This document shows positions 25,451 through 34,877 of a stretch of DNA of 64,000 bases, in pieces. The notes under the pieces are model-generated. The model saw only the letters and a program-made list of their open reading frames with translations. It did not search any database and was not told where the DNA came from. This DNA comes from Spirosoma sp. KCTC 42546 (GTDB taxonomy: Bacteria; Bacteroidota; Bacteroidia; Cytophagales; Spirosomataceae), in the NCBI RefSeq assembly GCF_006965485.1, contig NZ_CP041360.1, forward strand, positions 2,542,001 to 2,606,000, read 5' to 3'. How positions within the stretch are numbered: position 1 is the stretch's first letter; every line of letters starts with the position of its first letter. Both the position numbers and the translations under genes were made by a program.

Positions 25451-25482
25451 GCCCCAACTGGAAACCAGTTGGGGCTTTTTTA
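25451..25482 (+). terminator. Intrinsic terminator of rimP-nusA-infB
   Basis: GCCCCAACTGG (25451-25461) and CCAGTTGGGGC (25465-25475), perfect, AAA loop, then TTTTTTAT. Confidence 0.93.
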
Positions 25483-25589: not shown

Positions 25590-25943
25590 ATGACTGCCTA
25601 CCGACCGGGCTTGCATCTGTTGTCAACATTTGCCTCGACACCTGATTGCCTCACAAACGTGGGGGGCTGTCAGGCTACATTCAACCGGCTAATTGACGCG
25701 CTAACCTTAACGAAGGTGGGTGAAGTTTATCACGTTTTTCCAAACGGAGGGTTCACCGCTGTAGTCTGCCTAACCGAATCGCACGTATCGATTCATACCT
25801 GGCCAGAATTAGGAATCGCTACCTTCGACGTTTTTCTATCAAACTACCTAAAGGACAATACGGCCAAAACCCAGCAGTTTTATAGGGATGTGCTGACCTA
25901 TTTTGAGGCAACCGAACTCTCTAAACAGGAACTCAACCGATGA
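25590..25943 (+). CDS. speD: S-adenosylmethionine decarboxylase (SpeD) homologue lacking the catalytic cysteine
   Basis: A 117-residue protein of prokaryotic AdoMetDC type. GLHLLSTF aligns with GRHLVAEF; the self-cleavage site Glu63-Ser64 and His69 are kept in LTESHVSIHTWPE. The following strand is ATFDVFLSN where active enzymes have AxxDLFTCG, so the conserved Cys (general acid, Cys83 in the Thermotoga enzyme) is Ser84 here. Pyruvoyl formation may still occur, but normal decarboxylation is doubtful. It could use another substrate or be a partner protein. First gene of an eight-gene unit; its stop overlaps the DUF4178 start by 4 bases. A later gene encodes an aminopropyltransferase, the usual consumer of decarboxylated AdoMet. 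Confidence 0.85.
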   Translation: MTAYRPGLHLLSTFASTPDCLTNVGGCQATFNRLIDALTLTKVGEVYHVFPNGGFTAVVCLTESHVSIHTWPELGIATFDVFLSNYLKDNTAKTQQFYRDVLTYFEATELSKQELNR

Positions 25944-27250
25944 CAAACATGGCTCTCTCTGGCCATACGTTCCCGTCGGCCACGCTTACTTGCCCCAACT
26001 GTCAAACCACGATTACCTATTATGATGTATCGGGTAGTTCATACTATGGCTGTCCAAACTGCCATGCGTTTTTTAAGTACGAAAACGAAGGTCCGCCCGA
26101 AATTCTGACTACGTTTCAACCCTCTACGGCAACACCCGTTTTGCCAATTGGCTCAGAAGGCTACCTGAATGGTCAGTTCGTTCGGGTGGTGGGTCTACTG
26201 CATAAAAAAGAGGCTGGTTCATTTTACAGGTGGCTAGAATACATGCTGTTGCGACAGGATGGACGCTACAGCCAACTGGCTGAATACAACGGGCACTGGA
26301 TGGTTATTGAGCCAACGGATCACACGTATTCGCACTACCATGTTGGCGGCAAAACGTATACGATCAACACCGATGAAGGTCAATACTGGCTCTATAACCA
26401 ATATAAACCTGAACTACTTAACGCCGTAGGGGAGTTCGACTGGAATTGTCTGGAGGACGAAAAGCTGACGATCTCTGAATACATTCGGCCCCCTTCCATG
26501 CTCATTAGTGAACAGGGAGCAACTGATTCCAAGTGGTACAAAGCCCGCTATATTTCCCGTTCAGAATTGGCAACAGCTTTTGGCATTGCAAAGGACGTGT
26601 TGCCAGCTCCATCCGGTGTTGGGGCTATTGAACCTGCCGACCCTGATGATCGTTCGGGTACGTTACTGGCATTTACAGGTATGCTCCTGGTTGCCGTTTT
26701 TGTACTTCAGGTTATTCTCAGTATTGTAAAACCGTCAACACAACTGCTTAAAGAGTCCTATCAAACTGAATCAGATTCGTCGGGTACGATCAAACCAATT
26801 ATTACGTCTTCATTTGATGTAGATGGCCCTACCGTACTGGCGTTTAATCTGTCGGCCTCGCTTGATAATCAGTGGATTGAATTACCGGTTACGTTAATCA
26901 ACGAGCAATCGGGCAGAGTTTATGAATTTAGTAAGACGCTGGAATATTATTATGGCGTAGAAGGTGGCGAAAGCTGGTCGGAGGGTAGTCGTGATGATGA
27001 TGCTGTTTTATCACGGATTCCGTCAGGGCGTTATCATGTAAATATATATCCTGCCAGAGATCTGGGTAAACCAGTATCGTTCAGTATTGGTATCACGCAA
27101 AACACCATGCTGGGCTCCAATATTGCTTTGCTCCTTTTATTATTTTCTATTTACCCAATTAGTCTCTTTGTGAATAAGCAATGGCATGAGAGCCAGCGCT
27201 GGAGCAATAGTGATTATTCTAAGGTTTATACAGAGGAGGATAAATCATAA
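25940..27250 (+). CDS. Zn-ribbon, DUF4178 membrane protein
   Basis: A 436-residue protein. A zinc ribbon opens it (CPNC at about 13-16 and CPNC at 33-36). A DUF4178-type beta domain follows (about 70-200; EYMLLRQDGRYSQLAEYNGHW, FDWNCLEDEKL). A first membrane segment lies near 237-258 (GTLLAFTGMLLVAVFVLQVIL), then an outside beta-sandwich-like part (about 265-385; FDVDGPTVLAFNLSASLDNQW) and a second membrane segment near 390-412. So the ribbon and DUF4178 are cytoplasmic with a receptor-like loop outside. Function unknown; DUF4178 genes repeatedly sit with DUF350 and polyamine genes. Start ATG 25940 overlaps speD (ATGA); a start at 25949 is possible. Confidence 0.8.
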   Translation: MTNMALSGHTFPSATLTCPNCQTTITYYDVSGSSYYGCPNCHAFFKYENEGPPEILTTFQPSTATPVLPIGSEGYLNGQFVRVVGLLHKKEAGSFYRWLEYMLLRQDGRYSQLAEYNGHWMVIEPTDHTYSHYHVGGKTYTINTDEGQYWLYNQYKPELLNAVGEFDWNCLEDEKLTISEYIRPPSMLISEQGATDSKWYKARYISRSELATAFGIAKDVLPAPSGVGAIEPADPDDRSGTLLAFTGMLLVAVFVLQVILSIVKPSTQLLKESYQTESDSSGTIKPIITSSFDVDGPTVLAFNLSASLDNQWIELPVTLINEQSGRVYEFSKTLEYYYGVEGGESWSEGSRDDDAVLSRIPSGRYHVNIYPARDLGKPVSFSIGITQNTMLGSNIALLLLLFSIYPISLFVNKQWHESQRWSNSDYSKVYTEEDKS

Positions 27251-27252
27251 CT

Positions 27253-27450
27253 ATGAGTAAAGAACTGGCCAAAATAAAATACTATGTAGTAGTTGCGCTC
27301 CTTGCGCTTGGCGGATTTGTGTGGGCTGGTCTTACCGGAACACGTTTACTGGGCGACGACAATGAGAGTATTGAAAACAAACAGGGCTACTATGGTGGTT
27401 CAGGCCATTCTGGCGGCAGTCGCGGCTATTCCCGATTTTATCATAAATAA
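27253..27450 (+). CDS. Small single-span Gly-rich membrane protein
   Basis: 65 residues: basic N-terminus, one membrane segment (YYVVVALLALGGFVWAGL), then an outside tail rich in Gly, Ser, Tyr and His (QGYYGGSGHSGGSRGY). It starts 2 bases after the DUF4178 stop and is followed 13 bp later by DUF350. I do not recognise a family; position and spacing argue it is real and part of the membrane complex. Confidence 0.65.
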   Translation: MSKELAKIKYYVVVALLALGGFVWAGLTGTRLLGDDNESIENKQGYYGGSGHSGGSRGYSRFYHK

Positions 27451-27463
27451 CCTTACCTCCAAC

Positions 27464-27670
27464 ATGGAATACAAGTACATTACGGCCTCCATTGTTTACT
27501 CACTGCTGGGTATTGCGATACTGATCATCAGTTTTGTCATTATTGAGAAAATTGCGCCCGAAAATCTCTGGAAGAAAATTGTTGACGAGCAAAATGTTGC
27601 CCTGGCCATTCTGGCGGCTGCGTTCATGATTGCCGTTTCCATTATTATCAGTTCTGCCATTCATGGTTAG
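27464..27670 (+). CDS. DUF350 family two-span membrane protein
   Basis: 68 residues from ATG 27464, chosen because the hydrophobic family core starts right after it (ITASIVYSLLGIAILIISFV) and the longer frame upstream overlaps the preceding gene. Second span: NVALAILAAAFMIAVSIIIS with the family ENxAxAI...AAF pattern, ending AIHG. Most DUF350 proteins carry two such repeats (four spans); this is a single-unit version that would need to dimerise. In E. coli a DUF350 gene (yjfL) sits beside a glutathionylspermidine-synthase-like ATP-grasp gene, linking the family to polyamine chemistry. It overlaps the next gene by 8 bases. Confidence 0.8.
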   Translation: MEYKYITASIVYSLLGIAILIISFVIIEKIAPENLWKKIVDEQNVALAILAAAFMIAVSIIISSAIHG

Positions 27671-29210
27671 TGACGAAGAGCGGGTGGCGGTCAGGCCGGG
27701 ATTAACTTCCCTGCATTGGCTGTTGCTGGTGTCGGTATTTGTTATTTCGACCTGCGGGCTGATTTACGAACTCGTAGCCGGTACGCTCGCAAGCTATCTG
27801 CTGGGCGATTCGGTCATGCAGTTTTCAACCATCATCGGGGTCTATCTATTCTCGATGGGCATCGGCTCATGGCTCTCTAAATACCTCGATGGTAACCTGC
27901 TTAAGTGGTTTATTCGAATTGAACTTCTGGTGGGTATTGTTGGCGGATGCAGTGCGCCGTTGCTGTTTGTCCTGTTTGATTATGTGGCCTCATTTCGGTT
28001 GGTGTTGTACACGTTGGTCGGGTTAACGGGTATTTTGGTCGGGCTGGAAATTCCACTGCTCATGCGCATTCTGGAGAACCAACTGTCGTTCAAAGACCTG
28101 GTTTCCCGTGTGTTTACATTCGATTACATTGGGGCACTGCTGGCATCGTTAATCTTTCCCCTGATTCTGATTCCGCAACTCGGCCTGATTCGCACCTCCC
28201 TGTTTTTTGGCTTACTGAATATCGGTGTGGCGGGGTTCCTGCTGTATCGATTTGCTGAAACCCGCGCATTCCGGCCTGGATTCACGATCGTACTAGTGGC
28301 CTCCGTTATTCTATTAACCGCTGGTTTTATTTATGCCGAACGCATCATGTCGTATGCCGAAGGCGTATCGTTTCAGGATACGGTTATTTACAGCAAAAGT
28401 ACGCCCTATCAACGGATTGTGCTGACCCGGAACAACCGCGAACTCCGGCTTTATCTGAACGGCAATCTGCAATTCAGTTCGGCCGATGAGTATCGTTACC
28501 ACGAGGCTCTTGTACATCCGGCCATGCAGGCGCGCCCCAACGCACAACGCGTACTGGTGCTGGGTGGGGGCGATGGAATGGCCGTGCGGGAACTGCTCAA
28601 ATATCCGGCTATTCAGCACATTCGTCTGGTCGATCTGGACCCAGGAATGACGAGTTTGTTTCAGCAGAATGAAACACTACTGAAGCTTAATCAGCGGTCG
28701 TTGTTATCCCCTAAGGTGCAGGTTATCAATAACGACGCGTTTACCTGGATACGCCAGGACACCATCCACTATGACGTTATTATTGTGGACTTCCCCGACC
28801 CGTCGAATTATTCAATTGGCAAGCTTTACAGTACCACTTTTTATGCCGAGCTGGAAAAGCGGCTGGCACCCGATGGGCTAGTGGTAGTACAGTCGACGTC
28901 GCCTTATGTAGCTCGGAAATCGTTCTGGTGTATCCGGAACACGCTGGCAGCGGTTGGTTTTCAGACCATTCCTTACCATGCTTATGTGCCGTCGTTTGGT
29001 GAGTGGGGGTATGTGTTGGCGCTCCGCAATCGGCACTGGCGCGTAGATGGCCCACTGCCGAAGGGGCTTCGCTATACTAATACGGCTACCCTCCGGGATA
29101 TGCTTTATTTTCCACCCGATATGTCGGAAGTGCCAGCAGCGGTCAATAAATTGAATAATCAGGTTCTGGTACAGTCGTTTGAAGAAGAGTGGGCACCTTA
29201 TGGACAATAA
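27663..29210 (+). CDS. Membrane-fused spermidine synthase-like aminopropyltransferase
   Basis: 515 residues from ATG 27663. Seven hydrophobic segments (about 15-225) precede a spermidine-synthase domain (about 245-480): YQRIVLTRN, LYLNGNLQFSSADEYRYHEALVHPA, the AdoMet-binding VLVLGGGDGMAVREL, acidic VDLDPGM, and DFPDPSNYSIGKLYS with the catalytic Asp. These are the aminopropyltransferase residues, so transfer of an aminopropyl group from decarboxylated AdoMet to an amine at the membrane is likely; acceptor unknown. The usual LDPE acidic motif is DLDPG, so methyltransferase-like use of AdoMet cannot be ruled out. Overlaps DUF350 upstream and the FAD enzyme downstream (11 bases). Confidence 0.88.
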   Translation: MVSDEERVAVRPGLTSLHWLLLVSVFVISTCGLIYELVAGTLASYLLGDSVMQFSTIIGVYLFSMGIGSWLSKYLDGNLLKWFIRIELLVGIVGGCSAPLLFVLFDYVASFRLVLYTLVGLTGILVGLEIPLLMRILENQLSFKDLVSRVFTFDYIGALLASLIFPLILIPQLGLIRTSLFFGLLNIGVAGFLLYRFAETRAFRPGFTIVLVASVILLTAGFIYAERIMSYAEGVSFQDTVIYSKSTPYQRIVLTRNNRELRLYLNGNLQFSSADEYRYHEALVHPAMQARPNAQRVLVLGGGDGMAVRELLKYPAIQHIRLVDLDPGMTSLFQQNETLLKLNQRSLLSPKVQVINNDAFTWIRQDTIHYDVIIVDFPDPSNYSIGKLYSTTFYAELEKRLAPDGLVVVQSTSPYVARKSFWCIRNTLAAVGFQTIPYHAYVPSFGEWGYVLALRNRHWRVDGPLPKGLRYTNTATLRDMLYFPPDMSEVPAAVNKLNNQVLVQSFEEEWAPYGQ

Positions 29211-30858
29211 CGCTGACCAATACGAAGGGCCAACGGCCAGCCGACGCGAATTTTTGGTACAGGCAGGCCTTGGCGTGGGGGCCTTGATGATCGGCGCTAC
29301 TGGATTACCTGCCTGCTCCCCATCACGTTCGAGTAGCCATATTAAAGGTGGGATGGTGGGTGCCAATCATCAGACTGGCCACAAACTCAGAGCAATTCCA
29401 GCATTACACAAGTTGCCGATTGCCGGGCAGCTAACGACCGATGTCCTCATTATTGGTGGCGGTGTTTCGGGCTTATCGGCACGGCGGTGGTTGCATCAGC
29501 AGGGCGTTCGGGAGGTGATGTTGGTGGAAATGGATACGCAAACGGGCGGCAACGCGGCCTATGGACAAAACGCCGTTTCTGCCTATCCATTTGGCGCGCA
29601 TTACCTGCCAGTTCCGGATCTTCGGCATAAAGAACTGCTTGATTTCTTACAGGAGAGCGAGGTCTGTACAGGTTTCGATGCGGAGAAACGGCCGATATAT
29701 AACGATTACTTCCTTTGTCACGATCCTGAAGAACGCCTGTTTATTAATGGTTTCTGGCAGGAGGGGCTTGTGCCGGAAACAGGTGTGCCGGAGATCGAAA
29801 AAGAGCAGATTCGGCGTTTTTTTGAAGTGATTGAACACTTCAGGCAGGCGAAAGGTACCGATGGGCTCGATGCGTTTACGATTCCACTCGACCGATCCTC
29901 TACCGATGCGCAGTTTCGCGCTTTAGACGCTATTTCATTTGCCGGTTATCTTGATAAAGAAGGATTTACGTCGCCGTACCTACGCTGGTATCTGACCTAT
30001 TGCTGTCGTGATGATTACGGTGCCACATTAGAAACGACCTCGGCCTGGGCGGGGATCCACTATTTTGCTTCTCGGAAAGGACAAGCCGCTAACGCAACTG
30101 CGGCCTCAGTGCTGACTTGGCCACAAGGGAACGGATTTCTGGTCGATCAACTTCGGGCGCAGGCGGATTCGCCGATCCGACATAACCTATTGGGCTACGA
30201 TCTGCAACTCAGTAGTTCTGGCGTGACGGTTCGAGCCTGCGATGTTGAGACTAATCATACCATCCTAATTCACGCGCGTAAGGTGATTATGGCAACCCCA
30301 CAATTCATTACAAAACACCTGACTGGCTCTATTGATCCAGAGCGAACCAATCTGGCGGGTTTTCGATATGCCCCCTGGATGGTGGCTAATCTGACTATTT
30401 CAGGACTACCGCAGGGGAGAGGTATGCCGCTTTGCTGGGATAACGTGCTCTATAATACTCCATCGGTTGGCTACATTACCGCTAACCATCAGGACCTGCA
30501 CGATACTCCTCAAAAAGTAATTACGTATTATAAACCACTCACTGATCAGGAACCGGACGCTGCCCGACGAACGGCATATACGACGACTTATGAACAATGG
30601 CTGGACCAGATTCTGAATGAATTAGAGATGGCACATGCGGGCATAACCCCTTATGTTTCGCAAGTGGATGTCTGGTTGTGGGGGCATGGTATGATTGCGC
30701 CATCACCCGGTTTTATTTGGGGAGCAGAACGCCAGCGGGCTCGTCAACCCATTGACAATCGGGTATTTTTCGCTCACTCCGACTTAAGTGGGATCTCCAT
30801 TTTTGAGGAAGCATTTTATCAGGGTATCCGGGCCGCTCAGGAAGTTACGAAGGCGTGA
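29200..30858 (+). CDS. Tat-exported, lipobox-bearing FAD-dependent amine-oxidase-like enzyme
   Basis: 552 residues from ATG 29200. Twin-arginine signal SRREFLVQAG (R15-R16), hydrophobic core, then LPAC with Cys39 fitting a lipobox, so a folded flavoprotein is probably exported and lipid-anchored. The dinucleotide loop LIIGGGVSGLSARRWL (83-98) and VEMDTQTGGNAAYGQN fit FAD-binding NAD(P)-binding-like/amine oxidase folds; C-terminal FFAHSDLSGISIFEEAFYQG is the second FAD-contacting motif. It may oxidise an amine or the product of the neighbouring aminopropyltransferase; substrate inferred only from context. Start overlaps the synthase gene by 11 bases and its stop overlaps the next start. Confidence 0.8.
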   Translation: MDNNADQYEGPTASRREFLVQAGLGVGALMIGATGLPACSPSRSSSHIKGGMVGANHQTGHKLRAIPALHKLPIAGQLTTDVLIIGGGVSGLSARRWLHQQGVREVMLVEMDTQTGGNAAYGQNAVSAYPFGAHYLPVPDLRHKELLDFLQESEVCTGFDAEKRPIYNDYFLCHDPEERLFINGFWQEGLVPETGVPEIEKEQIRRFFEVIEHFRQAKGTDGLDAFTIPLDRSSTDAQFRALDAISFAGYLDKEGFTSPYLRWYLTYCCRDDYGATLETTSAWAGIHYFASRKGQAANATAASVLTWPQGNGFLVDQLRAQADSPIRHNLLGYDLQLSSSGVTVRACDVETNHTILIHARKVIMATPQFITKHLTGSIDPERTNLAGFRYAPWMVANLTISGLPQGRGMPLCWDNVLYNTPSVGYITANHQDLHDTPQKVITYYKPLTDQEPDAARRTAYTTTYEQWLDQILNELEMAHAGITPYVSQVDVWLWGHGMIAPSPGFIWGAERQRARQPIDNRVFFAHSDLSGISIFEEAFYQGIRAAQEVTKA

Positions 30859-31901
30859 TGAAACAGCCCTGGATAAAAAATGCCCGCTTCGACGGCCTGT
30901 ATGTACTGGCTCCGCCATTTCTGGCCTTGCTGGTCGTATGGCTGTTGCCGGAGCGGTTCAAAACCACCAGCGAGATGCCACTTGTTGGCTGGGTGATACT
31001 GGTGTTGCTGGTTGATGTGGCGCATGTGTACAGCACTTTGTTTCGTACCTATTTTAACGGCGCGCGTTTCCGGCAGCAGCGGCTATTATTTCTGATGATC
31101 CCATTGGGTTGCTATCTGGGAGGGGTCTTGCTGCACAGTGTCAATAGCTTATGGTTCTGGCGGGCACTGGCGTATTTGGCCGTCTTTCATTTTGTGCGCC
31201 AACAGTATGGCTTTATGCGCATCTACAGCCGTTTCGACAATGTACCTGGTTGGTCAAGGGGACTGGATACACTGGTCATTTATGCGGCTACAGTATATCC
31301 TGTCATTTGGTGGCACCTGACTCCCGGGCGGCATTTTAACTGGTTCATTGACGGTGATTTTGTTCAGCCGCAGCTAAAATGGCTGAAAATTACGGCAACA
31401 ATTCTGTACTGGCTCTTGCTTGCCTTATACGTTGGAAAAGAAAGTTGGCTATATGCCCGCTCCCGTGAGCTTAACTGGCCTCGTAATTTGTTGGTTGCGG
31501 GTACGGTTAGTTCGTGGTATTTCGGGATCATTCAATTTAATGGGGATCTGGCGTTTACGATGCTCAACGTAGTGTCGCACGGTATTCCGTATATGGCGTT
31601 GATCTGGGTCAGCGACCGACCGAAACTGACTTTGAAACAGGAAAATTCTACTGGATTATCAATAAACAGGTTTAGTTGGCTTGTTTTTTTTAGTTTACTC
31701 GGTATTCTGGCTTATCTTGAAGAGGGTTTGTGGGATGGGCTCGTCTGGCGCGAACACGCTACGGTTTTTGGCTGGTTTCAGGCACTTCCACTTGTAACGG
31801 AACAACATCTGCTGGCTTTGTTAGTCCCTTTACTCGCACTCCCACAAATGACCCATTATGTGCTGGATGGTTTTATCTGGCGGAGAAAAGATCGTTCATG
31901 A
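30858..31901 (+). CDS. Polytopic membrane protein with conserved-looking intramembrane histidines
   Basis: 347 residues from ATG 30858 (TGATG overlap with the FAD gene; a GTG one codon earlier is possible). About eight membrane segments. His residues fall at segment ends in motif-like settings: DVAHVYSTLFRTY (D53, H56), VFHFVRQQYGFMRIY, VVSHGIPYMALIW, QMTHYVLDGFIWR. Such a pattern of D/H near R is what a membrane metal- or quinone-binding oxidoreductase shows, but I do not recognise the family. It lies between the exported flavoenzyme and the phosphoesterase; I suggest it passes electrons or binds a cofactor for the flavoenzyme. Stop overlaps next start by 4 bases. Confidence 0.65.
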   Translation: MKQPWIKNARFDGLYVLAPPFLALLVVWLLPERFKTTSEMPLVGWVILVLLVDVAHVYSTLFRTYFNGARFRQQRLLFLMIPLGCYLGGVLLHSVNSLWFWRALAYLAVFHFVRQQYGFMRIYSRFDNVPGWSRGLDTLVIYAATVYPVIWWHLTPGRHFNWFIDGDFVQPQLKWLKITATILYWLLLALYVGKESWLYARSRELNWPRNLLVAGTVSSWYFGIIQFNGDLAFTMLNVVSHGIPYMALIWVSDRPKLTLKQENSTGLSINRFSWLVFFSLLGILAYLEEGLWDGLVWREHATVFGWFQALPLVTEQHLLALLVPLLALPQMTHYVLDGFIWRRKDRS

Positions 31902-32602
31902 AATTCCTTACCATCAGTGACCTTCACGGAAGAACCGTCTGGAAGGAAGCTAATTTTGACAAGTACGACCAGATTATTTTCCTTGGCGATTATACAGATA
32001 GTTATATTGTTGATGATGAAACGATTTATACGAATCTGCTTGAAATCAGTCAGTTAAAGCAGGCTAATCCAGATAAGTTTGTGTTGCTGATTGGCAATCA
32101 CGATGCCCAATACCTGCATTTTCCGCACTATCGCTGTTCTGGATTTCGGGCTTGGGCGCAACCTACGTTGAGCGACTTTTTTGCCAAACACCAAAATCTG
32201 TTTCAAATAGCGCATCAGGAGGGGCCTTATCTGTTTACGCATGCGGGCATTACCAATAAATGGCTTAAACGATTACTGACGGAAACCAACAATGAATCCT
32301 TAGCCATAACTCCCGATTATCATTTGGCCGAATTAGTAAATGAGATCCACCAGCGAGAGCCGTGGTTCCGTAATCTACTATTTGAGGTTAGTCCCAAACG
32401 GGGTGGCTCTAGTCCGTTTAGCGGACCAATTTGGGCCGACCGTTCCGAAACGAAAACCGATTACGTAGCGGGATTCCATCAGGTTGTTGGGCATACACCC
32501 ATCCATGAATTTACAACAGTGGGCGATGAGTCTGGGTCAATTACGTATACAGATGTACTGCAAACCAAAACAGCATTTTACGAAATCACAATCCCTGACT
32601 AA
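31898..32602 (+). CDS. Calcineurin-like metallophosphoesterase
   Basis: 234 residues from ATG 31898, where the first metal motif begins (FLTISDLHG, D8 and H10); the frame is open further upstream but that overlaps the previous gene. Further motifs: FLGDYTD, LIGNHDAQYL, FTHAG and VGHTPIH, completing the dinuclear metal site of the PP1/Ser-Thr phosphatase-like branch. Cytoplasmic, no signal. Substrate may be a protein, nucleotide or diphosphate. Last gene of the eight-gene unit (ATGA overlap), which argues for a role in the same process, though it could be an independent housekeeping enzyme. Confidence 0.85.
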   Translation: MKFLTISDLHGRTVWKEANFDKYDQIIFLGDYTDSYIVDDETIYTNLLEISQLKQANPDKFVLLIGNHDAQYLHFPHYRCSGFRAWAQPTLSDFFAKHQNLFQIAHQEGPYLFTHAGITNKWLKRLLTETNNESLAITPDYHLAELVNEIHQREPWFRNLLFEVSPKRGGSSPFSGPIWADRSETKTDYVAGFHQVVGHTPIHEFTTVGDESGSITYTDVLQTKTAFYEITIPD

Positions 32603-32777: not shown

Positions 32778-34877
32778 ATGAACTTCCTTTATCCTACTTT
32801 TCTGTTTGGCCTGATGGCCGTGTCGGTTCCAATTGCTATTCACCTGTTTAATTTCCGGCGGACACGGCGGGTATTTTTCACGAATGTTGCCTTACTGCGG
32901 AGCGTTCAAACGGAAACCAAATCGTTTCGGCGGCTGAAACACTGGCTCATTCTGGCATGCCGTTGTTTATTTCTGGCCTGTCTGGTGCTGGCGTTCGCAC
33001 AACCGTTTATCCCCAGTAAAAATAAACTGGGTTTGTCGCGGCAGGGCGTTACCAGTCTGTATGTCGATAATTCGTTCAGCATGCAGAATGAGCGGAATAC
33101 CAAGCGCTACCTGGATATTGCTACGGGCAAATTAGATGAACTGTTGACACTGTTTCGCAATGCCTCTTCTCTTCAACTACTGACCAACGATTTTTCGGCG
33201 GCCGAGCAACAGGCCGGAACCGCCGAATCGGTTCGTGACCGCGTGACCTCCATCCGCTTTGCCCATACGCCCCGAACGCTCGAAACCGTTTACCGCCGAC
33301 AGCGTAACCTGCTGAGTTCGCTCAATCCGGGTGGTCGAAACCAGTTGTTCTGGTTCTCCGATTTTCAGAAAAGTACCGCGGGTGATTTATCGCGGCTTAA
33401 AATCGACACCACCGATCGTTTGTTTATTGTGCCATTGGATGCCCAGGCAACTAAAAACGTGTATGTCGATTCCGTGTGGCTGAGCACGCCCTTTATTCGG
33501 GAAATGCAGAACAACAGCATTAACGTTAAGCTCAATAACGCGGGCCGGGAGAATGTCAAGAACCTGCCAATACGCCTGTATTTAGATGATACACAAACGT
33601 CAACTGCTTCGGCCGTGCTGCCGCCGGGTGGATCGGCAACGGTGTCACTCAATTTCAATGTGACCTCGAAAGGGTACCACCGGGGACGGATTGTGTTTGA
33701 AGATTACCCAATCACCTTCGATAACCAGTATTTCTTTGTCATTGAAGCGTCTCCGGCTGTTCGGGTATTGCATTTGTATGAACAGCAGGCCGGTTCACCA
33801 ACGCGAACAACTCCTTATGTAGATGCTGTGTATTCAAACGACAGCCTGTTTGTGCATCGGAGTTTCAATGCCCAGAATTTCGATGTGGGCCAGTTGAAAG
33901 AAACTGATTTAGTTGTTCTGGAGGGAGTTGCTGATGTAAATGGCACCCTGCGTTCTGAACTGGAACGCTTTGTTCGTCAGGGTGGTAGCTTAACTATTAT
34001 TCCGCCTGCTGTGCCAAATGCAACCTCGTACGAGCCATTTCTACGAAGTTTAGGGGTTGGGAATCTGCAGGTTTTGGCTTCGCCGGGCGCAGCCCCCACC
34101 TCGGTTCCCGTGGCCGATCCTGACCGACGGACTCCATTTTTCCGGGATGTCTTTCAGCAGAGCTATCAATCCGAGCCGCTGAACATGCCAACGGCAGCGC
34201 CCGTCTGGCGCTGGAGTGCGGGAGAACGACTCCTAACCCTGCGTGATGGAAATCCATTACTAACTCAGTCCAGGGTGGGTAGTGGCACCGCCTTTGGCAA
34301 TGTTTATGTGCTTGCCAGCCCACTATCGTCGGCCTACGGGAATCTGGCTGAACACGCCTTATTTGTGCCGGTTATGTATAAAATGGCTGCCCTGAGCGTT
34401 CGGGCGCAGCGGACGGCCTACTCATTCGATGATAACCTGTTGACGATTCCAGTGAGCAATCCGTCCGAACGGTCAGTATATAAATTGAAGCGCGATAAAC
34501 TGGAAATTATTCCGGTTCAGCGTGTAGTTGGCAATCAACTCCTGCTCGAAATGCCCAAGAGTAACGAACTGGCTGCTGGACAGGAGGTGGAAGCGGGCTA
34601 CTATGCGTTGCAGAACAGCGACGGGAAAACGGAGCGATTGCTCGCCTTTAATCACGGTAACGAAGAGTCGTCAATGGATTTTTATTCAGCCGACGAGCTT
34701 CGCCGGGCATTTGCCAATCAGCCTAATGTTGAGGTATTCGACAGCATTCAGGATGGCGATTTTGTACAAGTGCTGGAGCAGGAAAATTTGGGCAAAAGTC
34801 TCTGGAAGTACTTCCTGCTGGCGGCATTAGCGTTTTTGCTGGTGGAAGTGGGCTTAGTGCGGTTTATGAAAGGATAA
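32778..34877 (+). CDS. BatA-domain (aerotolerance N-terminal) membrane protein with VWA-like region
   Basis: 699 residues. BatA N-terminal domain: MNFLYPTFLFGLMAVSVPIAI, HLFNFRRTRRVFFTNVALL, second span WLILACRCLFLACLVLAFA. Next an outside VWA-like domain with intact MIDAS start D97-x-S99-x-S101 (YVDNSFSM). Then beta-rich domains (about 240-340), a GATase-like region (LKETDLVVLEGVADVNG), and a C-terminal span (WKYFLLAALAFLLVEVGLV). This domain order is typical of Bacteroidota BatA-domain proteins near MoxR systems, although no MoxR or DUF58 gene is adjacent here. A -7-like TTACTTTG lies 5 bp before the ATG. Role: envelope protein folding or stress, inferred. Confidence 0.85.
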   Translation: MNFLYPTFLFGLMAVSVPIAIHLFNFRRTRRVFFTNVALLRSVQTETKSFRRLKHWLILACRCLFLACLVLAFAQPFIPSKNKLGLSRQGVTSLYVDNSFSMQNERNTKRYLDIATGKLDELLTLFRNASSLQLLTNDFSAAEQQAGTAESVRDRVTSIRFAHTPRTLETVYRRQRNLLSSLNPGGRNQLFWFSDFQKSTAGDLSRLKIDTTDRLFIVPLDAQATKNVYVDSVWLSTPFIREMQNNSINVKLNNAGRENVKNLPIRLYLDDTQTSTASAVLPPGGSATVSLNFNVTSKGYHRGRIVFEDYPITFDNQYFFVIEASPAVRVLHLYEQQAGSPTRTTPYVDAVYSNDSLFVHRSFNAQNFDVGQLKETDLVVLEGVADVNGTLRSELERFVRQGGSLTIIPPAVPNATSYEPFLRSLGVGNLQVLASPGAAPTSVPVADPDRRTPFFRDVFQQSYQSEPLNMPTAAPVWRWSAGERLLTLRDGNPLLTQSRVGSGTAFGNVYVLASPLSSAYGNLAEHALFVPVMYKMAALSVRAQRTAYSFDDNLLTIPVSNPSERSVYKLKRDKLEIIPVQRVVGNQLLLEMPKSNELAAGQEVEAGYYALQNSDGKTERLLAFNHGNEESSMDFYSADELRRAFANQPNVEVFDSIQDGDFVQVLEQENLGKSLWKYFLLAALAFLLVEVGLVRFMKG

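What the first reader, a model, noticed from the sequence alone, without database searches (positions are those of the whole stretch)
25590..32602. Eight-gene coupled membrane system: SpeD-like, DUF4178, DUF350, fused spermidine synthase, exported flavoenzyme, His-rich membrane protein, phosphoesterase
Seen: one promoter after the infB terminator, then eight genes with stop/start overlaps or gaps under 15 bp. Known: DUF350 and DUF4178 genes often sit near aminopropyltransferase or glutathionylspermidine-like genes (E. coli yjfL region). Inferred: a membrane machine that makes an aminopropylated product (SpeD/SpeE), displays it via DUF4178/DUF350 and processes it outside with a Tat flavoenzyme coupled to the His-rich protein. 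The last two components are not part of any system I know by name.
Basis: partly seen in the sequence, partly recalled or inferred. Interest (0 to 1): 0.85.

Follow-up and report, generated by a model that had tools for sequence, protein, structure and literature searches.

The report
Aminopropyl-transfer operon with His-Lys-tailed peptide
A conserved bacterial gene cluster pairs polyamine-making enzymes and an exported flavin enzyme with a tiny exported membrane peptide whose last two residues are nearly always His-Lys, which suggests that the cell chemically modifies the end of this peptide rather than just making free polyamines.

Summary
The eight coupled genes are real. Seven form a conserved operon; the phosphoesterase does not belong to it. 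Among 80 loci found through the His-rich membrane protein, gene order matches the window in 78, all seven genes stand in order in 54, and the phosphoesterase adjoins 3.

The core (DUF4178, DUF350, 7TM-aminopropyltransferase, exported protein; variants with AdoMet decarboxylase and polyamine oxidase) was described in 2024 (PMC11237479).

What I add concerns the small third gene, a single-TM exported peptide ending in His-Lys in 103 of 106 loci although the rest diverges. In 124 7TM-SpeE loci without a glutathionylspermidine-synthase-like ATP-grasp ligase, 119 have an exported partner ending in Lys and 5 none that I found. Beside that ligase, 0 of 21 partners end in Lys; most end in Gly or Ser. 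E. coli members of that ligase family are annotated peptide-spermidine ligases.

Best reading: SpeD and SpeE aminopropylate the peptide's C-terminal lysine at the envelope; the Tat-type exported flavoenzyme, with the 4-His membrane protein (no matching fold found), then oxidises the product. Modification is inferred, not shown. New variant of a known kind.

The parts
25590..25943 (+). g1: class 1b AdoMet decarboxylase (SpeD-like); processing Ser64, His69 and Trp71/Glu73 kept, Ser84 at the place of T. maritima Cys83
   Evidence: Pfam PF02675 1.7e-20; PDB AdoMetDC alignments; residue tally
25940..27250 (+). g2: N-terminal CxxC zinc-ribbon-like part, DUF4178, TM (about 245-263), predicted extracytoplasmic part, second TM (about 395-413)
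   Evidence: PF13785 4.2e-7; hydropathy over 79 homologues
27253..27450 (+). g3: 65-aa single-TM exported peptide, Gly/Ser-rich tail
   Evidence: no Pfam family; HK-ending peptide in 103 of 106 loci; 65 of 65 profile hits end in HK
27442..27447 (+). codons of the C-terminal His64-Lys65 of g3, proposed acceptor/recognition end
   Evidence: sequence; conservation
27464..27670 (+). g4: DUF350 (YjfL-like), 2 TM
   Evidence: PF03994 1.5e-12; hydropathy
27663..29210 (+). g5: seven hydrophobic segments plus aminopropyltransferase (SpeE) domain with intact Asp376/Asp379 and GGGDG
   Evidence: NF002956 8.9e-204; PDB aminopropyltransferases; conservation and topology
29200..30858 (+). g6: exported Tat-type flavoenzyme with lipobox-like Cys39, amine-oxidase/PPO fold
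   Evidence: PF01593 6.5e-9; AF2 pLDDT 90.2; Foldseek and VIA matches; R15 in 42 of 42, C39 in 37 of 42
30858..31901 (+). g7: membrane protein (8 hydropathy peaks, about 10 long helices in the model) with invariant His56, His111, His241, His333, plus Asp53, Glu288/289, Asp337
   Evidence: no Pfam family; A2 invariants in 44 sequences; AF2 pLDDT 85.8; hydropathy; no Foldseek PDB match at E<=0.001
31898..32602 (+). g8: calcineurin-like metallophosphoesterase; lineage-specific neighbour, not a core member
   Evidence: PF00149 2.1e-9; beside the operon in 3 of 80 loci and 3 of 33 family genomes that have it
25451..25475 (+). terminator-like hairpin after infB, upstream boundary

Best explanation
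g1-g7 are one envelope protein-modification operon. SpeD makes decarboxylated AdoMet in the cytosol. The membrane aminopropyltransferase SpeE passes aminopropyl groups to the side chain of the C-terminal lysine of the small exported peptide g3, a hypusine- or silaffin-like lysine modification, instead of making free spermidine. DUF4178 and DUF350 hold or regulate peptide and enzyme at the membrane. The Tat-exported flavoenzyme g6 then oxidises the modified end (maturing or removing it) and passes its electrons into the membrane through g7, whose four buried histidines probably bind a metal or haem. Shown here by sequence: operon conservation, intact SpeE catalytic residues, the conserved peptide end, and its co-variation with the ligase chemistry next door. 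Inferred: the modification itself, the electron route, and each protein's role.
For: (1) Operon unity: order as in the window in 78 of 80 loci found via g7 (g6 in 79, g2 and g5 in 78, HK peptide in 77, g1 in 70, g4 in 65). (2) The peptide is poorly conserved except for its end: 103 of 106 SpeE loci have a small ORF ending in His-Lys between g2 and g5; 99 distinct peptides, 61 clusters below 50% C-anchored identity; 65 of 65 hits picked by a g3 profile end in HK (the profile was built from such peptides). Background: 88 of 7583 small ORFs in the 80 loci end in HK, most of them these peptides. (3) End and chemistry co-vary: 119 of 124 7TM-SpeE loci without the GSP_synth ligase have an exported partner ending in Lys, 5 none found; with the ligase 0 of 21 end in Lys. 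E. coli YgiC/YjfC of that ligase family are annotated 'peptide--spermidine ligase', as is the title of Pederick 2023, seen only as a citation. (4) HK stays in L309/L310, which lack g6 and g7, so it follows SpeE. (5) Peptide fused to the DUF4178 C-terminus in L295, ending SGSHK. (6) SpeE catalytic residues invariant. (7) Own genome has one SpeD and a separate carboxynorspermidine decarboxylase homologue above cut-off, so housekeeping spermidine need not come from here. (8) Silaffin lysines carry aminopropyl units, and AdoMetDC plus an aminopropyltransferase are named as candidate makers of the polyamines (PMC3820600 passages).
Against: No mass-spectrometric or genetic evidence. The sides of the membrane are unsettled: the peptide tail is predicted outside; the 7-TM count with N-in charge bias would put the SpeE domain outside too, where dcAdoMet is not made, yet the segment after TM7 is not depleted in K/R as the other outer loops are; an inside SpeE would have to act before export. 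The C-terminal Lys could be a recognition tag. Five SpeE loci show no such peptide (L136, L258, the Gemmatirosa and two Burkholderia plasmid loci). Among the ligase loci, a second neighbouring lipoprotein-like ORF, not the one I took as partner, does end in Lys in L331, L332 and L335. The lineages are related, so independent changes behind the K versus G/S rule are few. Ten of 80 loci lack SpeD in place and 15 lack a DUF350 hit (two of each are the truncated or SpeE-less loci L201 and L204). SpeD lacks the catalytic Cys. g6 has no Lys conserved above 80%, so it is not a standard amine oxidase.
Confidence: 0.38

Rival explanations
1. The operon makes a free polyamine for the envelope. SpeD/SpeE synthesise spermidine- or thermospermine-like amines that stabilise the membrane; DUF4178, DUF350 and the peptide sense stress or anchor the enzyme; g6 is a periplasmic polyamine dehydrogenase. 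The His-Lys end is a docking tag. This is close to the proposal in PMC11237479.
For: Closest solved relatives of g5 are thermospermine synthase and other polyamine aminopropyltransferases; the g6 fold matches putrescine oxidase, MAO and spermidine dehydrogenase SpdH among others; PMC11237479 proposes polyamine-linked membrane dynamics (passages).
Against: It does not explain why the tail partner's end switches from Lys to mostly Gly/Ser where a peptide-spermidine-type ligase is present, nor why spermidine would be made twice in this genome.
Confidence: 0.34
2. g6 and g7 are a separate dehydrogenase and electron-transfer pair that happens to sit in a SpeE operon; the C-terminal His-Lys is a metal- or haem-binding or docking end for that pair.
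For: g7 occurs only with g6 in the family survey (13 of 13); g7 has four invariant His in membrane helices plus acidic residues; His is at position -2 of the peptide throughout (where HK was the selection).
Against: HK peptides persist without g6/g7 (L309, L310), and GK-ending partners accompany SpeE in operons without g6 (L311, L314-L318).
Confidence: 0.17
3. The peptide is a RiPP-like precursor: the modified C-terminal dipeptide is clipped off to give a small diffusible molecule or cofactor, as with the C-terminal residues of mycofactocin precursors (recalled), with g6/g7 as maturation enzymes.
For: Divergent leader with a conserved C-terminal dipeptide and redox tailoring enzymes in the operon; several peptides look like cleavable signal-peptide proteins (by eye).
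Against: No peptidase among g1-g7, no further gene family recurs at a fixed place by the operon, and most peptides keep a TM-like segment.
Confidence: 0.1

Closest known systems
CesT/Tir-PspA-linked operon with DUF4178, DUF350, 7TM-spermidine synthase and exported lipoprotein (PMC11237479, group 2 and variants)
   Same: Same DUF4178, DUF350 and 7TM-SpeE families plus an exported partner; [quoted passage not shown] Locus L316 here is of that type by Pfam (PspA, CesT_Tir, DUF4178); L314, L315 and L317 look alike in the ORF listing only.
   Different: No PspA or CesT/Tir in the window operon; adds g7 and the His-Lys peptide. The passages read do not mention a conserved C-terminus of the exported protein ('lysine' does not occur in the main text).
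E. coli yjfIJKLMC and ygiBC (peptide--spermidine ligases YjfC/YgiC with DUF1190 proteins)
   Same: DUF350 (YjfL) plus an exported protein with a Gly/Ser/Arg-rich tail and a polyamine enzyme.
   Different: Uses an ATP-grasp ligase instead of SpeE; tails end in Gly-Gly (YgiB ...SMGG; YjfM ...HWGG) instead of His-Lys.
Diatom silaffins and eIF5A hypusine
   Same: Lysine side chains extended with polyamine-derived groups; for silaffins AdoMetDC and an aminopropyltransferase are candidate enzymes (PMC3820600 passages; hypusine recalled).
   Different: Internal lysines and eukaryotic; here a C-terminal lysine of a membrane peptide, modification unproven.
Flavin amine oxidases (putrescine oxidase, MAO, SpdH) and PigB
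   Different: Far below the PigB cut-off (49.5 versus 850 bits); no Lys conserved above 80% in 42 homologues.

Membership tests
Class 1b AdoMet decarboxylase | PF02675 above gathering score | tested here: met
   73.8 bits against cut-off 25
Class 1b AdoMet decarboxylase | NCBIfam equivalog TIGR03330 above cut-off | tested here: not met
   62.4 bits against 75.65; the Bsu-type equivalog label is withheld, the broader family kept
Class 1b AdoMet decarboxylase | Catalytic Ser63/His68/Cys83 (PMC10407285 passage) | tested here: not met
   Ser and His kept, Cys replaced by Ser; 89 of 98 SpeDs with the motif have Ser, 9 Cys, including 6 of the same operon type in L140-L145. Activity therefore uncertain; I file it as a family relative, not as a proven decarboxylase
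Polyamine aminopropyltransferase (fused type) | NF002956 above cut-off | tested here: met
   677.7 bits against 472
Polyamine aminopropyltransferase (fused type) | GGGDG and D-x-x-D catalytic residues intact | tested here: met
   G301-G303, D376 and D379 at 1.00 and D304/G305 at 0.99 over 103 homologues
Polyamine aminopropyltransferase (fused type) | Transfers aminopropyl to a free di- or triamine | not testable with these tools
   needs enzyme assay
Flavin amine oxidase (MAO/PAO) | PF01593 above gathering score and fold | tested here: met
Flavin amine oxidase (MAO/PAO) | Conserved active-site Lys (recalled) | tested here: not met
   no Lys conserved above 80% among 42 homologues; no residue-level superposition was done
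DUF350 and DUF4178 | Pfam gathering scores | tested here: met
   48.2 against 26, and 30.6 against 25 bits
PSP-linked DUF4178/DUF350/7TM-SpeE operon (PMC11237479 group 2) | CesT/Tir-PspA dyad in the operon | tested here: not met
   none among g1-g8; present in L316
Peptide-spermidine ligase system (YgiC/YjfC) | GSP_synth ATP-grasp in the operon | tested here: not met
   absent from g1-g8; the only homologues among 129 related loci are in L312, L313 and L137. Own genome has one elsewhere
Any solved membrane-protein fold for g7 | Fold match | tested here: inconclusive

The most novel reading that the evidence does not exclude
A bacterial counterpart of hypusination at the cell envelope: a transporter-fused aminopropyltransferase whose catalytic domain faces the periplasm extends the C-terminal lysine of a tiny membrane peptide, and a Tat-exported flavoenzyme with a 4-His membrane partner of no recognised fold oxidises it. 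A C-terminal code (Lys for SpeE, mostly Gly/Ser for the spermidine ligase) would unify the DUF350/DUF4178, yjf and ygi systems as one superfamily of polyamine protein-end modification.
Probability: 0.24. Interest if true: 0.92.

Novelty: new variant of a known kind. Interest (0 to 1): 0.74.

Why it matters
DUF350/DUF4178/SpeE neighbourhoods occur in several phyla and their product is unknown. The peptide end offers a direct, cheap test: measure the mass of one 65-residue peptide. If the lysine carries an aminopropyl group, it would be a new bacterial protein modification, would help explain SpeD/SpeE genes in bacteria that can make spermidine another way, and would link E. coli's poorly understood yjf/ygi operons to the same logic.

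Tried and rejected
Phosphoesterase as a component: rejected. Defence system: PADLOC gave only a SpeE-domain hit to mad2 (1.2e-16, residues 292-436 only), taken as shared transferase fold. Known family for g7: none in Pfam for the window protein, and for 19 members only single-member weak hits; Foldseek and VIA listed no convincing relative; distant relatives L146-L151 show no operon and, in the three whose neighbours I listed (L147, L149, L150), no telling neighbours. Other conserved neighbours of the operon: 25 clusters were listed; the largest (21 of the loci, response-regulator-like) varies in strand and place, and none sits at a fixed place. SpeD Cys83-to-Ser as a novel-chemistry hallmark: weakened, because 6 operon SpeDs keep Cys. 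A first version of the rule, 'Gly-Gly beside the ligase', was too narrow: partners also end in SS, GS, HA and SL; only 'not Lys' holds, and only for the Gly/Ser/Arg-tailed protein that I took as partner; a second neighbour ends in Lys in L331, L332 and L335. Partner ends in L309, L311, L326, L327 and Novosphingobium L328 were read from listings filtered for HK/GK/GG or HK/GK endings or short ORFs, so those rows are selected; the 103 were also picked by ending, and one search is the control selected by profile. Dropped before counting: L201 and L204 (no SpeE in the locus). Some loci are the same genome twice (L118/L184, L125/L214, L129/L210, L139/L223). For the ligase, 8 of 26 loci above cut-off had no readable partner (L338, L339, L345, L348, L351, L354, L355, L356; in L348 and L356 the partner runs off the locus); in L350 the tail was read from an ORF in another frame than the rest of the partner. 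No residue-level structural superposition of g6 or g7 was possible.
Full report
What is there. Eight ORFs on the + strand run from 25590 to 32602 with junctions of -4, +2, +13, -8, -11, -1 and -4 nt (coordinates), behind infB and a strong terminator-like hairpin at 25451-25475. Pfam and NCBIfam give AdoMet decarboxylase (g1), DUF4178 (g2), nothing (g3), DUF350 (g4), fused polyamine aminopropyltransferase (g5), flavin amine oxidoreductase (g6), nothing (g7), and calcineurin-like phosphoesterase (g8). The window lies in an 8.66 Mb single-contig genome; the nearest named relatives of g7 are from Spirosoma and Fibrisoma.

Which genes belong together. In 121 genomes of the same family, strong SpeE (g5) hits occur in 25, strong g6 in 23, g7 in 13; by coordinates every strong g6 lies beside g5 and every g7 beside g6, with gaps under 300 nt between the matches. 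In 296 genomes of the phylum, long 7TM-SpeE (E<1e-90) occurs in 22; g6 (E<1e-100) in 12 of these; close g7 (E<1e-70) in 9 of those. The nesting is g7 within g6 within g5. In these 80, order matches the window in 78; g6 is present in 79, g2 and g5 in 78, the HK peptide in 77, g1 in 70, g4 in 65; all seven in order in 54. g7 is present in all 80 by construction. g8 adjoins only 3 of 80 and, in the family, the window plus 2 genomes out of 33 that carry it. No other gene family recurs at a fixed position. So the operon is g1-g7.

The third gene. Between g2 and g5, 103 of 106 loci have a small ORF (44-122 aa as first-start ORFs) ending in His-Lys. These are 99 distinct peptides in 61 clusters below 50% C-anchored identity; positions -3 and -4 favour Tyr and Phe, the rest varies, and the N-terminal side of the TM is more positive in 81 of 99 (equal in 13), which points to an N-in, tail-out orientation. 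The ending was used to pick these ORFs; as a control, 65 of 65 ORFs picked by a g3 profile end in HK, though that profile was built from such peptides. In L295 the peptide is fused to the end of DUF4178, which then ends SGSHK. In L194 the unit g2-g3-g4 is duplicated. HK is kept in L309 and L310, which have g1, g2, g4 and g5 but neither g6 nor g7.

A C-terminal code. Other 7TM-SpeE operons have an exported partner that also ends in Lys: L314-L318 (GK; L316 with PspA, L318 with an ion channel), L311 (GK), Ensifer (GK), Alteromonas (GK), Tritonibacter (VK), Novosphingobium (HK). A GSP_synth ATP-grasp homologue is present in only 3 of 129 loci searched, L312, L313 and L137 (Pfam), and exactly these partners end in RSYGG. 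Leaving out these 3 and two loci without SpeE, 119 of 124 loci have a Lys-ending partner; in 5 (L136, L258, L323, L324, L329) I found none. A survey for GSP_synth in the phylum (26 of 296 genomes) gave 18 loci with a readable Gly/Ser/Arg-tailed partner, none ending in Lys (GG or GGG 8, SS 6, GS 2, HA 1, SL 1); two of these are the genomes of L312 and L313. With L137 and E. coli YgiB and YjfM that is 0 of 21. Against this, a second lipoprotein-like neighbour ends in Lys in L331, L332 and L335. YgiC and YjfC carry the RefSeq name peptide--spermidine ligase; the paper behind it (Pederick 2023) I saw only as a citation. A ligase needs a free carboxyl end; an aminopropyltransferase needs an amine. 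The partner's last residue fits the enzyme next door. Related lineages mean few independent events, so this is strong correlation, not proof.

The enzymes. SpeE keeps all catalytic motifs and its best solved relative is thermospermine synthase. Its seven hydrophobic segments show an N-in charge pattern over 103 homologues and in 13 of 13 others, 12 of which have seven segments and one eight; seven crossings would put the catalytic domain outside, but the stretch after TM7 is not depleted in K/R, so this stays open. SpeD keeps the processing Ser and the His, but has Ser where the Cys that PMC10407285 counts among the essential residues should be (passages); 89 of 98 share Ser, 9 have Cys, 6 of those in the same operon. 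The own genome has one SpeD and a carboxynorspermidine decarboxylase homologue above cut-off, the alternative spermidine route. g6 is Tat-like (Arg15 42 of 42; position 16 Arg in 32, Lys in 5) with a lipobox-like Cys39 (37 of 42) and no conserved Lys; its model (pLDDT 90.2) matches putrescine oxidase, MAO, PPO and SpdH. g7 (pLDDT 85.8) has four invariant His in helices at 42-66, 97-123, 230-252 and 328-340 of the model, with Asp53, Glu288/289 and Asp337; no convincing fold match was found.

Reading. The most economical account is an envelope system that aminopropylates the C-terminal Lys of the peptide, followed by oxidation by g6/g7. A free-polyamine role, as PMC11237479 proposes for its relatives (passages), stays a serious rival. 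PMC11237479 was the only paper held that contains DUF4178 and its main text does not contain 'lysine'. Searches for DUF350 with spermidine synthase, peptide-spermidine ligase terms, YjfC/YgiC, and aminopropylation of small membrane proteins showed in their listings no account of the His-Lys peptide; the listing was 10 of 46 papers. Subscription papers, including Li 2019 on AdoMetDC gene linkages, could not be read.

Noticed in passing
window 25590-25943, residue 84 of g1: The catalytic Cys83 of T. maritima AdoMetDC is Ser in 89 of 98 SpeDs examined but Cys in the same operon of loci L140-L145.
   Followed up: partly
own genome G000:C1:8226683-8227813 (L338): The genome also encodes a GSP_synth ATP-grasp protein with no readable exported partner within the 1.5 kb on either side.
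   Followed up: no
L194 (Solitalea agri): The DUF4178-peptide-DUF350 unit is duplicated in tandem inside the operon.
   Followed up: no
L183 (Spirosoma telluris): g2 and g6 are each split into two ORFs, either decay or assembly error.
   Followed up: no
L228, L237, L241, L246-L249, L262: An extra protein of about 208-240 aa weakly like g2 precedes g2; most of these loci lack SpeD in the operon (L247 keeps it in front, L248 has one after g7, L246 has one on the other strand).
   Followed up: partly
L188, L218: Insertions of about 3.4 and 4.3 kb interrupt the operon (g5-g6 and g3-g5); in L218 no DUF350 hit remains.
   Followed up: no
L322 and L328 (Novosphingobium plasmids): The system sits on large plasmids, with an SPFH (band-7) gene in front in L322 and SpeD at the end in both, without g7.
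   Followed up: partly
window 32778-34877: The next gene downstream looks like ORFs that start within about 1.5 kb downstream of g6 in L122 and L124 (by eye), so the operon's genomic place is partly conserved.
   Followed up: no
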